From: Mycobacteroides immunogenum
GTDB lineage: Bacteria > Actinomycetota > Actinomycetes > Mycobacteriales > Mycobacteriaceae
Length of the DNA: 64,000 nt
Direction of reading: 5' to 3'
NCBI RefSeq assembly: GCF_001605725.1
Contig: NZ_CP011530.1
Span: forward strand, 4,092,001 to 4,156,000
Positions 1 to 28,600 of this stretch are shown here, piece by piece. Under the pieces are notes generated by a model. The model did no database searches. It saw only the letters and a program-made list of their open reading frames with translations, and was not told the DNA's origin. The position numbers and the translations under genes are program-made. Each line of letters begins with the position of its first letter. Within the stretch, counting starts at the first letter, position 1.

Positions 1-3000
1 TACCGGCAATCGTCAGCGCCACCGGATATTTGGCGGTAAACCAGCCCACAGTACGCGAGAGATCGACATCGTGGTCGGCGAAGCCACTCAGCTCTTCCTG
101 GCGCCCATGGCTTTCCACATCGATACCGACAGCCTCGCTACTCGTGAATTCGGTTGCGGCAAGAGCGAAGGCGATGAGCAGGATTTCGTGAATCCGGGCA
201 TGGAACGCGGCCGGCACCTCTGTCAGCAGCGCATGGATGATCTCGGCGTCATCGAGAGTCACCGATAGCCGCCCGGCATTGGCATAGGTGTCGGCCACCG
301 GATGCGGTGCGGGCAATACGGCAGGCGTCCGGGCGATCTGTCGCCACATGTGCTCCTGGGCAACCACTTCTGGCCGCTGGGCATGCTCGGCAAGCAGCCT
401 GGACCAGTGGGCGAACGACGTCCTACTCCCCGGCAGCGTGACCGGCACTCCCGCGCGGTGCTGCGCCCAGGCGATGTTCACGTCCTCCAATAGGATCAGC
501 CACGACACCGCATCGACAGCCAGATGATGAATGATCACCACCAACTGGCCTGTGGGCACAACCCACAACGCGCTGAGCATGACACCGGCCCGTGGATCCA
601 ACAGCGAACGCGCCCGCACCACCGCCTCATCGGTCAGCTCATCGACCGACCGGAGATACGTCCGCGCATCTACGGTCCCGGGCTCGGGAACCGTCAGCGA
701 CCAGTCTCCGGTGCCGCCATCGTCGACGCGCAAACGCAACATCGCATGCCGATCCAGCAGTGCCTGCAACACAGTCGCCACATCGTCCGCGGTAACCCCG
801 GGCGGAGCTTGCACCATCATGGTCTGGTTGAACTCATTGATCGGGCCGTCCACGCCGCGTAGCCACGCGATGATCGGGCTCGGATTCAGTGGCCCGACAC
901 CGTCGTCCACCGCAACGTCGGCACCGTCGCCGACCACCACGACACGGGCCAACCGCGCCACGGTCTGCTCAACAAACACATCCCGTGGCCTGCACATCAG
1001 CCCCGCGGCCCGTGCCCGGGCGACTACCTGCATCGATAAGATGCTGTCCCCGCCCAATTCAAAGAACGACTCGTCGGCGCCCACCCGCTCCAGACCAAGT
1101 ACCTGCGCATAGATTCCCGCCAGCAGCTCTTCGACGGGGGTCGACGGTGCCCGGTACTCCCCCGCCGAGTACTCCGGATTCGGCAGGGCTCGTCTATCGA
1201 GTTTCCCGTTCCCTGTCAGCGGCAACGCATCCAGCGCCACCACCGCTGCGGGAACCATGTAGCCAGGCAACCGGTCTGCCAGGGCGGCCCGCGCGGTGGC
1301 CGGATCTGCCGATCCGGTGATGTAGCCCACCAGTCGCTTGTCGCCCGGCCGATCCTCTCTGGCGATCACCACCGCCTGTTCCACCCCATCCACATCGGCC
1401 AGCGCCGAACTGATCTCACCGAGTTCGATGCGATACCCGCGGATCTTCACCTGCTCATCGACGCGGCCCAGATAGTCCAGCTGACCGTCGGTGCGCCAGC
1501 GCACGAGGTCGCCGGTGCGGTACATACGCATTCCGGCATCGCCAAACGGGCACGCCACGAATCGTGACCCGGTCAACCCCGACCGCCGCCAATATCCCAC
1601 TCCCACACCGGCGCCAGCCACATACAACTCACCCACCACGCCCGCGGGCACCGGCTTCATCGAGCTGTCCAGCACGAACAGCGCGGCGCCCGGCACCGGG
1701 GAACCAATCGGAACACCATGCGAGCCCGCCTTCAGCGGCGCACTGACGGCCGCATAGATCGCGGCCTCCGTGGGCCCATAGGCGTTGATCATCAACCGCT
1801 GCGAACCCCAACGGTCCACCAGTTCGGCGGGGCATGCTTCTCCGGCCACCACCAATGCCACCGAATCCAGCCCCTCCATCGGCAGCATTCCGGCGGCCGA
1901 GGGTGTTTGACTCAACACGGTGACCCGCTCGGACACCAGCAGCGCATGGAAGTCCTCGGGCGAGCGTTCCATGTCGTCCGGAACGACGACCAGGCGCCCA
2001 CCATTCAGCAAGGCACCGAAGATCTCAGACACCGAGACGTCGAAGGCCAGCGAATGCCATTGCGACCACACTCCCGCGGCAGGCAGGCCGAAGCCCGTCG
2101 ACGCCACCAGCTGCGTCACGTTCTGGTGGGTAACCGCAACACCTTTGGGGACCCCCGTGGTACCCGAGGTATAGATCAAGTAGGCGATATCGCTCGGCGT
2201 GGGTAGCGGCAGCTCCGTATCCGGCTGCGCCGATATGCCGGCGTCACCGATATCGATGACCGTGACCGGGTGACCATCGAGCCGCCCGGCCAGATCTCCC
2301 GTGCTGATCACCGCCAAGGGGGCGGCATCACCGAGCATGAAATCGACCCGGGCACCGGGCAGTGCCGGATCGATCGGCAGATACGCCGCGCCGGTCTTCA
2401 GTACCGCGAGAATGGCGACTATGGCCTGCTCCGAGCGCGGGATCAGCAGGCCGACACACTGACCTGGCCCCGCTCCGTGATCAACCAGCATGTGTGCCAG
2501 CCGGTTCGACGTATCATCCAGTTCCCGGTACGTCATCGAGCGACTCGCACAGGTCAGGGCCACAGCAGATGGGATACGTGCTACCTGTTGGGCGAAAAGC
2601 GCCGGAATCGACCCGGAAGTCGTGGGGTGTGTCAGTGCGTGTCTGTTCCCGATCTCATCCAGCCGGGCGTGCTCGGCATCATCGAGCAGATTCACCGACG
2701 AGAGTCGCCGCCCCGGATCCGCAGTCATGGCGGTCAGCACCCTGAGTAGCCGATCGGTGAGCGACGTGATGCTTGCCGGGTCGAACACGTCGGTACGGTA
2801 CTCGACCCGGCCGCTTATTCCCGCGGGATCGCCTGTCTCACTCCACTGTTCGGACAGCGAGAAGGTCATATCCATTCGCGCCGACTGGGTTTCCGCCGGT
2901 AGCGCGGTCACCTCGACCCCGCCCAGAGAGAATCCGGCCGCCGGGCCCGCGGAGTTCCCGGGGAGGTTCTGCCAGGCCAACATGACCTGAACCAAAGGAT

Positions 3001-4059
3001 GATGACTCAGTGACCGAACCGGATTGAGCCGCTCCACCAGTAATTCGAATGGCACATCCTGATTCTCAAACGCCGCCAAACTGCGCTTGCGTACCTGAGC
3101 GAGCAACTCGGCGAAGGTCGGATCGCCGGCCACGTCGACCCGGAGCACCAGGGTATTGACGAAGAAGCCCACCAGATCGTCCAACGCGGGATCGCGCCGT
3201 CCGGCGATCGGGAAACCCACCGCGACATCATCACTGGCGCTCACCTTGGCCAGCAACACCGCCAACGCCGCCTGCATCACCATGAAACTCGTCGTACTGT
3301 GCTCACGCCCCACGCGCCGCACCTGCTCCTGCAGCTCGGCCGGCCAATGTATCTCGACCGTGGCGCCGAGCTGGTCAGCCATGAGTGGGTACGGCCGATC
3401 GGTGGGCAACTGCAACCGCTCGGGCATCCCGGCCAACGCGTCTTCCCAGTACGACAGCTGCGTCGCCAGACGGCTGGCACTGTCGTCGAGATCGCCGAAC
3501 TGTGCCCGCTGCCACAGGGTGTAATCCGCGTACTGCACTGCTAGCGGCTCCCAGTCGGGAGGCTGTCCGACACACCTGCCCGCGTATGCGACTCCCATGT
3601 CGCGCACCAGCGGCGTGATGGACCAGCCGTCCGCGGCGATGTGATGTACCACCGCCGCCAGCACATGTTCGTCCTCGGCTGTCCGGAACAGTCGCGCCCG
3701 CATCGGGATCTCTGACTCCAGGTTGAACGCGTGAGAAGCCACCGCACTGACGGCCTCGGCCAATCGACCGTCGGGCCATCCACTGGCATCGATAGTCTCC
3801 CAACCGAAGTCGGCCTGTTCGGCGGGAATCACCACCTGCCGCGGTGTTCCGCCGGGTGCCGCGAACAGGGTGCGCAAGCTCTCGTGGCGGGCCACTACGT
3901 CGGCAAGAGCGGCACCCAAGGCATCCGAATCGAGCGGCCCGTTCAGACGCAACGCGGCAGCGATGTTGTACACCGGTGACGGTCCCTGCAACTGATCGAC
4001 AAACCAGAGCCGGTGCTGCGAGAACGAAAGCGGTACCACCTCGGGCCGCGTCCCAGCGA
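1..4059 (-). other. NRPS module 7: C, A, T, E (partial, runs off the left edge)
   Basis: The C domain begins with PLSFSQHRLWF near 4020-4055 and has HHIAADG near 3625-3655. The A domain has YTSGTTG near 2150-2180. Its A4 motif reads FDVSVSE instead of the FDxSVWE of five sister domains, giving pocket residues D-V-S-S-V-A-A-I-Y-K and probably a different substrate. The carrier site FFELGGDSI lies near 1025-1060. An epimerase starts near 880 with HHLAVDAVSW near 500-535. Its VGWFT motif is near position 50, and the domain continues beyond the window. Confidence 0.85.
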
Positions 4060-27697: not shown

Positions 27698-27838
27698 TAA
27701 TGACACGTCAGTCGCCTCGAAACTGTTGTCCAGAAGTCAGATTCGCACCGGCCGAAATTGGCTCGACAGTTATGCTGAACGCCATGACCCGCGACCGTCG
27801 GCGCCTGGATTCCCGAGAGCACAGGCGCTAATTCCGCT

Positions 27839-28600
27839 ATGTGGGGATCAGTACTGGGATTGGCCATGTTGGCCGCGCTCAACCCGGTGCGCCTGGGCCT
27901 TGCGCTTCTCATGATCTCGCGACCACGACCGGGACCGAACCTGTTCGCCTACTGGCTCGGTTGTCTCACGGTGTGCATTCCCGAGTTGCTCATCCCGGTG
28001 ACGCTGCTGCATTTCACGCCACTGTTCGGATCGTTCTCGGACGGCTCGGCAACATCGGCCAAGAGCACCGCCCTGGGCCACATACAGATCGCTGTGGGTG
28101 TGCTCGGGTTGACGATCGCCGGGGTGATCCTGGTGCGATCACTGACGCGGCAGCGTACCGACACGGCAGAGATGAACACAGCGTTCACAATTCCCCGGCT
28201 GCTGCGCCGCGACCAGGAGGGCGGCTCTGCCGCACCGGGGCACCAACCCCGCCGGCTGCTGCACCGAATCCACGACGCGTGGGACAACGGCGCCTTGTGG
28301 GTGGCCTGGGTGGTCGGCCTCATATCGGTGCCGGTGGACGGCATCCTCATCATCCTGGCCATCATCGTGGCCTCACGGGCGGGTATCGGCGCCCAGATCA
28401 GCGCCTCACTCGCCTTCATCGTGGTGATGTACGCCGTTGTCGAGCTAATCCTCGTCGGCTACGTGGCCGCTCCCACCCGAACCGAAGCGGCCCTGCGGCG
28501 ACTGCATGACTGGGTGCGGACCTACCGTTGGCAGATCATGGTGACATTGTTGGCGGTGGTCGGCGTTTCTCAGCTCGCCGAGGGCGTCGGCGGCAGCTGA
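27839..28600 (+). CDS. GAP/Sap-family lipid-addressing integral membrane protein
   Basis: The 253-residue protein belongs to the actinobacterial GAP (Sap, SfLAP) family. In mycobacteria these small membrane proteins are needed to bring glycopeptidolipid or sulfolipid to the cell surface. About six hydrophobic segments are visible: residues 1-25, 37-60, 80-102, 156-180, 184-212 and 230-248. A charged, poorly conserved cytoplasmic-looking loop spans about 103-150. It begins with the family-typical MWGSVLGLAMLAALNPVRLG. The gene diverges from the giant NRPS, so the likely cargo is the lipopeptide made by that enzyme. The ATG has no strong ribosome site. Family assignment is firm; cargo is inferred from position only. 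Confidence 0.85.
   Translation: MWGSVLGLAMLAALNPVRLGLALLMISRPRPGPNLFAYWLGCLTVCIPELLIPVTLLHFTPLFGSFSDGSATSAKSTALGHIQIAVGVLGLTIAGVILVRSLTRQRTDTAEMNTAFTIPRLLRRDQEGGSAAPGHQPRRLLHRIHDAWDNGALWVAWVVGLISVPVDGILIILAIIVASRAGIGAQISASLAFIVVMYAVVELILVGYVAAPTRTEAALRRLHDWVRTYRWQIMVTLLAVVGVSQLAEGVGGS

What the first reader, a model, noticed from the sequence alone, without database searches (positions are those of the whole stretch)
1..28600. Giant NRPS paired with a divergent GAP-family exporter: a candidate uncharacterised mycobacterial lipopeptide system
At least seven modules are visible, with D residues expected at 1, 5 and 7, N-methylation at 2 and a starter C domain. This is not the D-Phe/D-alloThr/D-Ala/alaninol plan of the glycopeptidolipid synthetases Mps1 and Mps2. 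The GAP-family neighbour implies that the product is moved to the envelope. Domain order is seen directly; acylation, export and product identity are inferred.
Basis: partly seen in the sequence, partly recalled or inferred. Interest (0 to 1): 0.8.

Follow-up and report, generated by a model that had tools for sequence, protein, structure and literature searches.

The report
Broken eight-module mycobacterial lipopeptide synthetase locus
A rapidly growing mycobacterium carries a huge enzyme gene and a matching export gene related to those that make a known surface lipopeptide of the Johne's disease germ, but with eight building steps, some altered building blocks, and a gene that appears broken in this strain.

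Summary
The domain reading is right: seven NRPS modules on the minus strand, an eighth with a thioesterase left of the window; D residues at 1, 5, 7, N-methylation at 2, starter C, and a divergent SfLAP/GAP gene at 27839-28600. By size the genome is Mycobacteroides immunogenum CCUG 47286. Two corrections. First, the frame is broken near 7.82 and 6.77 kb, inside E5 and C6; 15 of 34 genomes with a close starter C have one frame of at least 10,300 codons. Second, the system is not without a known relative: ORF A is 72% identical, collinear over five modules, to a 6,299-aa M. avium synthetase whose codes read D-Phe/NMe-Val/Ile/Phe/Ala, the order of the paratuberculosis lipopeptide L5P. GAP lies beside this synthetase in 31 of the 34. 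Modules 2-4 keep the L5P codes; 1, 5 and 8 differ from relatives; the mbtH seen before the synthetase in eight slow growers is missing. Best reading: an altered eight-residue relative of the L5P synthetase with its own GAP, probably inactive in this strain.

The parts
7580..26737 (-). NRPS ORF A, 6385 aa: modules 1-4 complete and module 5 up to the middle of its E domain
   Evidence: 83% identical to the intact relative G243 and 72% to P0012
6585..7940 (-). NRPS ORF B, 451 aa, other frame: rest of E5 and the start of C6 lie in it
1..6847 (-). NRPS ORF C (continues left of the window to -4285, 3710 aa): rest of C6, modules 6, 7 and 8, thioesterase
   Evidence: 81% identical to G243
22328..26737 (-). 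module 1: starter C (25742-26722), A code DFWSVGAIC, T, E (22328-23572)
17942..22234 (-). module 2: C, A code DAGIIVGIW, N-methyltransferase, T; NMe-Val predicted
14774..17941 (-). module 3: C, A code DFWTVGVMW, T; Ile predicted
11621..14773 (-). module 4: C, A code DVWTVAAMC, T; Phe predicted
7521..11620 (-). module 5: C, A code DVWSVAAMC, T, E (E broken by the first frame break); D-Phe or D-Ala
4040..7103 (-). module 6: C (broken by the second frame break), A code DFWSVGVMF, T; Val or Ile predicted
1..4039 (-). module 7: C, A code DVSSVAAIY, T, E (E runs on to -109); D-Ala-like predicted
7817..7820 (.). first frame break (approximate place)
   Evidence: homology to two intact relatives changes frame here
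6763..6771 (.). second frame break (approximate place)
26738..27253 (-). conserved non-coding leader before the NRPS start; slow-growing relatives carry an mbtH gene between GAP and NRPS, here there is none
27839..28600 (+). GAP/Sap-family membrane protein (SfLAP), 253 aa, divergent from the NRPS

Best explanation
The locus is a divergent member of the mycobacterial lipopeptide synthetase line that includes M. avium/paratuberculosis Mps1 (L5P, L3P), in the full eight-module form, with its own GAP protein. A fatty acyl chain would be taken up by the starter C domain, eight residues added in order (D-X1, NMe-Val, Ile, Phe, D-Phe or D-Ala, Val/Ile, D-Ala, X8), the chain released by the TE, and the unglycosylated lipopeptide moved to the surface with the help of GAP. 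MbtH help would have to come from another locus. In this strain the synthetase is split by two frame breaks inside E5 and C6, so the product is probably not made. Shown here: domain plan, homology, GAP linkage, missing mbtH, frame breaks in the assembly. Inferred: residues, acylation, export, loss of product.
For: Same module, E and MT order as intact relatives and, for modules 1-4, as P0012. 72% identity over 6,077 residues of ORF A to P0012; P0012 aligns to residues 21-6114 of the eight-module relative G046 (82%) and its tail to residues 10061-10373 (63%), so the five-module enzyme looks like the eight-module one lacking its middle. Codes calibrated on loci with known products: GL8P T-A-F-I-Y-L-T-T, GPL, L5P, read. 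GAP divergent within 5 kb in 31 of 34 genomes, also where the chromosomal context differs. Frame breaks. Clusters of ORF A and ORF C also occur in other contigs, the longest of 5,604,845 bases, which is not the type strain's size.
Against: Module 1 lacks the Phe code of L5P; modules 5 and 8 also differ from slow-growing relatives. mbtH is missing. Of 40 GAP rows taken at 55% identity or more, 5 are not beside a listed NRPS, and G310, G059 and G048 have the NRPS without such a GAP. No MmpL, PKS or dedicated fatty-acyl-AMP ligase was recognised among the flanking ORFs scanned; the nearest acyl ligase is of the steroid CasI type, and two further AMP-binding ORFs lie at 47991-49637 and 53390-55045, so the acyl supply is open. 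The frame breaks could be assembly errors: hybrid assembly with iterative gap closing, and 6531-7821 has two 67-69% similar copies in the same gene.
Confidence: 0.75

Rival explanations
1. The frame breaks are assembly or sequencing errors; the strain has an intact, working synthetase of about 10,350 residues.
For: The middle stretch is still 77-80% identical to intact relatives, so it has not decayed much; hybrid assembly with gap filling; NRPS modules are repeats and hard to assemble.
Against: Clusters of the split ORF A (6 members, 11 contigs) and ORF C (3 members, 17 contigs) include a contig of 5,604,845 bases, so another assembly seems to carry the split too. The clusters are at 90% identity, so this is suggestive only.
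Confidence: 0.25
2. One reading: a lipopeptide system without a characterised relative.
For: No paper on this locus was seen among the titles listed (several of these lists were cut); positions 1, 5 and 8 have other codes.
Against: Collinear homology and code match to the synthetases that fit L5P and L3P.
Confidence: 0.05
3. It is the known GPL or GL8P locus.
For: Both are also NRPS loci with GAP-family genes in this genome.
Against: Both lie elsewhere: GPL at 4.69-4.71 Mb, GL8P at 5.31-5.34 Mb with E domains at 1, 3, 6, 8 and GL8P codes.
Confidence: 0.01
4. GAP belongs to the neighbouring steroid or acyl genes (KshA-type oxygenase, CasI-type ligase), not to the NRPS.
For: It lies 4 bases from the KshA-type gene, and this neighbourhood recurs in G243 and G098.
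Against: 1 of 80 KshA loci has it; 31 of 34 genomes with the NRPS have it beside the NRPS; in none of the 8 slow-grower stretches fetched were KshA or CasI found at E 1e-20.
Confidence: 0.03
5. The three ORFs make separate polypeptides, or ribosomes shift frame, so that the split enzyme still works.
For: All three ORFs are open and contain conserved sequence.
Against: The splits lie inside the E and C domains, not between domains; two shifts would be needed, the second returning to the first frame.
Confidence: 0.05

Closest known systems
Mps1 of M. avium subsp. paratuberculosis, L5P (C type) and L3P (S type) synthetases (P0012 and P0059; assignment of P0012 to L5P by code order)
   Same: Starter C-A-T-E first module, NMe module second, codes of modules 2-4, TE end; 72% collinear identity over five modules; in the M. 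avium-like genome G338 (97% to P0012) also a divergent GAP
   Different: Eight modules instead of five or three; module 1 without the Phe code; no mbtH; broken frame
Eight-module GAP-linked synthetases of slow growers (G046, G061, G036, G080); the lipooctapeptide of a rough M. avium cited by Leclercq 2025 as reference 52 (Riviere 1996, not held, not read) is the likely product type
   Same: Identical domain order, GAP divergent
   Different: Phe codes at 1 and 8 there and mostly Ala-type codes at 5; mbtH present; other chromosomal site
GL8P locus MAB_4690c/MAB_4691c of M. abscessus (PMC11978893)
   Same: NRPS octapeptide; GAP-family genes lie near the copy in this genome
   Different: Two proteins, E at 1, 3, 6, 8, no MT seen, Thr-rich and glycosylated
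GPL Mps1/Mps2 and Gap
   Same: GAP family, D-residue first
   Different: Four residues ending in alaninol; no NMe module

Membership tests
L5P/L3P (Mps1) synthetase line | Collinear sequence homology to Mps1 | tested here: met
   72.2% over 6,077 residues of ORF A to P0012
L5P/L3P (Mps1) synthetase line | Module 1 with E and module 2 with N-methyltransferase, TE at the end | tested here: met
L5P/L3P (Mps1) synthetase line | Codes NMe-Val, Ile, Phe at modules 2-4 | tested here: met
   8, 9 and 8 of 9 positions as in P0012
L5P/L3P (Mps1) synthetase line | Phe code at module 1 | tested here: not met
   DFWSVGAIC against DVWTVVAMC; therefore not filed as an L5P synthetase
L5P/L3P (Mps1) synthetase line | mbtH directly upstream | tested here: not met
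   a small homologous ORF precedes the NRPS in 8 of 8 slow-grower regions, one scanned as MbtH, four found by the MbtH family search; none beside the NRPS in G000, G243, G310, G098
L5P/L3P (Mps1) synthetase line | Product is an N-acyl D-Phe peptide ester | not testable with these tools
   needs lipid chemistry
GPL synthetase (Mps1/Mps2) | Phe-Thr-Ala-alaninol order over two proteins | tested here: not met
GL8P synthetase | E at 1, 3, 6, 8 and codes T-A-F-I-Y-L-T-T over two proteins | tested here: not met
SfLAP/GAP membrane proteins (PF11139) | Pfam match above cut-off, several hydrophobic stretches | tested here: met
   190.5 bits, five hydrophobic stretches by a simple hydropathy scan
SfLAP/GAP membrane proteins (PF11139) | Needed for display of the lipid at the surface | not testable with these tools
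   reported for Gap and GPL (passages in PMC1885439)

The most novel reading that the evidence does not exclude
NRPS plus GAP is a minimal, movable surface-antigen unit. It entered some Mycobacteroides between birA and accD5, lost its mbtH partner, had its residue pockets at 1, 5 and 8 changed, and was then broken in M. immunogenum, in parallel to the module losses that gave L5P and L3P in M. avium/paratuberculosis. The peptide would thus be a repeatedly trimmed and re-specified species-typing antigen.
Probability: 0.35. Interest if true: 0.55.

Novelty: new variant of a known kind. Interest (0 to 1): 0.4.

Why it matters
L5P has been tried as a diagnostic antigen for Johne's disease and GL8P is proposed as a marker for M. 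abscessus. A third, related lipopeptide locus in M. immunogenum and close relatives gives a set of intact and broken natural genomes in which the role of such lipids, and of one GAP per lipid, can be tested. It also suggests where the shortened paratuberculosis enzyme comes from.

Tried and rejected
Rejected: GPL or GL8P identity (both loci are elsewhere in the genome); GAP as part of the KshA/CasI neighbourhood; an mbtH hidden in 26738-27838 (chance-level matches only) or another coding gene in the leader; a known RNA family there (one hit far under its gathering score, E 0.5, to a miRNA family, inside GAP and not credible). Probably not this locus: the M. immunogenum 'siderophore' NRPS region of PMC8116688 (section read), which is described with lysR and luxR genes and as absent from other species; among the flanking ORFs scanned the only LysR-type match is under its cut-off and this NRPS does occur in other species; I could not see their table. 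A phage search of part of the flank found nothing. A 23-base invariant stretch of the leader was sought as a regulon signal: one copy each in G000, G243, G310 and G098, none in G088 and G046, so no regulon seen. The residue choice at positions 1 and 8 could not be settled. In one search a wider motif pattern read position 4 of the module 2 code differently in some rows; the aligned reading is used. In one search the motif pattern missed one A domain of G098 (module 5); one search found eight. In one search three short false motif hits entered the tree, and the starter C domains of GPL and GL8P were not picked up.
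Full report
Identity of the source. The genome holding the window has 5,573,781 bases in one contig and the window is 4092001-4156000 of it. That size is the one published for Mycobacterium (Mycobacteroides) immunogenum CCUG 47286 (abstract; whole text read). The species name rests on this size alone.

Observation. ORF listing and motif search give three minus-strand ORFs: A 7580-26737 (6385 aa), B 6585-7940 (451 aa) and C -4285..6847 (3710 aa, running left of the window). The Condensation family search placed C and E domains across them. 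The order is Cstarter-A-T-E, C-A-MT-T, C-A-T, C-A-T, C-A-T-E, C-A-T, C-A-T-E, C-A-T-TE. A tree of C and E domains puts the starter C with that of P0012, C2/C6/C8 with the C domains that follow E modules in GPL and GL8P, and C3/C4/C5/C7 with the other elongation C domains (E5 was not in it, three short false motif hits were, and the GPL and GL8P starters were not picked up). D at 1, 5, 7, NMe at 2, and a starter C are therefore confirmed as domain predictions.

Proteins of two intact relatives match the stretch 5.5-9 kb in one frame down to about 7.82 kb, in another frame from there to about 6.77 kb (77-80% identity), and in the first frame again below. The breaks fall inside E5 and C6. Of 34 genomes with a close starter C, this one included, 15 have a frame of at least 10,300 codons. 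Of the other 19, G001, G038 and G062 run into the end of their contig, G338, G247 and G224 are one-contig genomes with shorter frames, as is this one, and the rest were not checked. The clusters of ORF A and ORF C in the protein database stand for 11 and 17 contigs, the longest 5,604,845 bases in both, so another assembly seems to carry the same split. A hybrid assembly with iterative gap closing leaves room for error, so the broken gene is held at about 0.7.

What it is. A search with the first 500 residues of ORF A found 369 proteins above the limit among 826 scored candidates and listed 120. Among them are P0012, a 6,299-residue protein named as from M. avium (195 members), and P0059, named MPS1 of M. 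paratuberculosis. Their pocket codes read Phe+E, NMe-Val, Ile, Phe, Ala+TE and Phe+E, NMe-Val, Ala+TE. This is the order of L5P and L3P as given in PMC8103206 (abstract and passages) and PMC8471605 (passages). That P0012 is the L5P enzyme is inferred from code order and name, not from an experiment on it. ORF A is 72.2% identical to P0012 over 6,077 residues without break in order. P0012 itself matches residues 21-6114 of the eight-module relative G046 at 82%, and its tail matches residues 10061-10373 at 63%, so the five-module enzyme looks like an eight-module one that lost the part between.

Residues. Codes were read by alignment and by motif. The GL8P locus in the same genome served as control: its eight codes agree with the determined octapeptide T-A-F-I-Y-L-T-T (passages) in that equal or near-equal codes stand at equal residues; GPL (passages) and L5P add Phe, Thr, Ala and NMe-Val. 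The matching of codes to residues is thus empirical; general code tables were recalled, not looked up. Window: module 2 DAGIIVGIW (NMe-Val), 3 DFWTVGVMW (Ile), 4 DVWTVAAMC (Phe), 5 DVWSVAAMC (the code of P0059 module 1, Phe; but among slow growers the domain core is closest to their module 5, Ala-type), 6 DFWSVGVMF (Val or Ile), 7 DVSSVAAIY (Ala-like), 1 DFWSVGAIC and 8 DFWCVGAIC (open; cores nearest to Ile-type module 3 or Ala-type module 5 of slow growers, not to their Phe modules 1 and 8). No Thr code is present. That fits an unglycosylated lipid, as L5P is said to lack sugars for want of a hydroxyl group (passage), and no glycosyltransferase was recognised among the flanking ORFs scanned.

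GAP. In a draw of 396 genomes of the genus, the 34 rows with starter-C identity of 63% or more (34 genomes, this one included) were taken from the list; 31 have a GAP match (E 1e-60 or better) within 5 kb and all 31 are divergent; the three without are G310, G059 and G048. Of the 40 GAP rows typed (55% or more), 5 are not beside a listed NRPS. Among 80 loci found through the neighbouring KshA-type gene only L009 has this GAP (some loci have short flanks). Of the window genes tested, the eight slow-grower stretches share only NRPS and GAP. This ties GAP to the NRPS. GAP-family proteins near the GL8P locus and at the GPL locus of the same genome are 47, 42 and 39% identical to it. Gap is needed for GPL transport to the surface (passages in PMC1885439); the same role here is inferred.

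mbtH. A small homologous ORF precedes the NRPS in 8 of 8 slow-grower regions; one was scanned and is MbtH, and MbtH places beside the NRPS were found in the four slow growers searched. In G000, G243, G310 and G098 no MbtH lies there. This genome has three MbtH places, two of them at the GPL and GL8P loci. MbtH proteins can stand in for each other (passage in PMC3537567). About 500 bases before the NRPS start are 72-84% identical between the window and three relatives, with stops in all six frames of each and gaps mostly of one or two bases, so a leader or control region.

Place in the chromosome. The locus lies between birA and accD5. In ten genomes that I chose as near relatives, with AccD5 92-100% identical to the window's, this interval is 35.2-42.3 kb in four (G000, G243, G170, G310) and 0.4-5.3 kb in six. 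G170 and G098 show the same coordinates and are taken as one genome. All four carry KshA- and CasI-type genes there. In the eight slow growers neither birA nor accD5 was found in the fetched stretches. Gain of an island in some Mycobacteroides or loss in others are both possible. G+C of the NRPS does not stand out (0.655 against 0.647-0.649 in the flanks), while KshA-CasI (0.627) and the UbiD/AraC block (0.609) are lower.

M. avium. G338 (97.35% to P0012) has GAP, MbtH and a frame of 7,204 codons that ends in module 6, with no further module found in the 12 kb after it. Together with the five- and three-module enzymes this points to repeated shortening of the same synthetase.

Literature. Of Leclercq et al. 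2025 (PMC11978893) I read the abstract, sections 6 and 12 and passages. They describe GL8P, say that second loci vary between species, and note that a lipooctapeptide of a rough M. avium (their reference 52) fits predictions from M. avium complex genomes. Their Data S1, which may list this locus for M. immunogenum, could not be read. No paper on this locus was seen among the titles listed; several of those lists were cut (for example 15 of 925), so absence from print is not shown.

Verdict. A real and correctly read feature, but a variant of a known lipopeptide synthetase line and probably broken in this strain.

Noticed in passing
window 55397-57999: An ISL3-family transposase (55397-56641) lies next to an aldehyde dehydrogenase ORF whose profile match stops at 380 of 461, as if cut short.
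   Followed up: no
window 26738-27253: About 500 bases upstream of the NRPS are conserved but non-coding in the window and three relatives, with a 23-base stretch invariant in all four and found once per genome.
   Followed up: partly
G338:C1:1467740-1489321 (L144, L145): The M. avium-like relative has a synthetase frame that ends in module 6; no later module was found in the next 12 kb.
   Followed up: partly
window 28605-31702: KshA-type Rieske oxygenase and CasI-type steroid-22-oyl-CoA synthetase beside GAP, present at the same site in G243, G310 and G098.
   Followed up: partly
L089 7003-11648: A UbiD/UbiX pair resembling the VdcC/VdcB hydroxyarylic acid decarboxylase, with an esterase and an AraC-type regulator, present at this site in G243 but not found in G098 and G310.
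   Followed up: partly
G277, G218: Two different NRPS frames of about 10,400 codons in one genome, only one of them with a GAP of this type beside it.
   Followed up: no
P0059, modules 1 and 3: By eye, the A-domain cores of modules 1 and 3 of the paratuberculosis MPS1 look identical over long stretches, which suggests exchange between modules.
   Followed up: no
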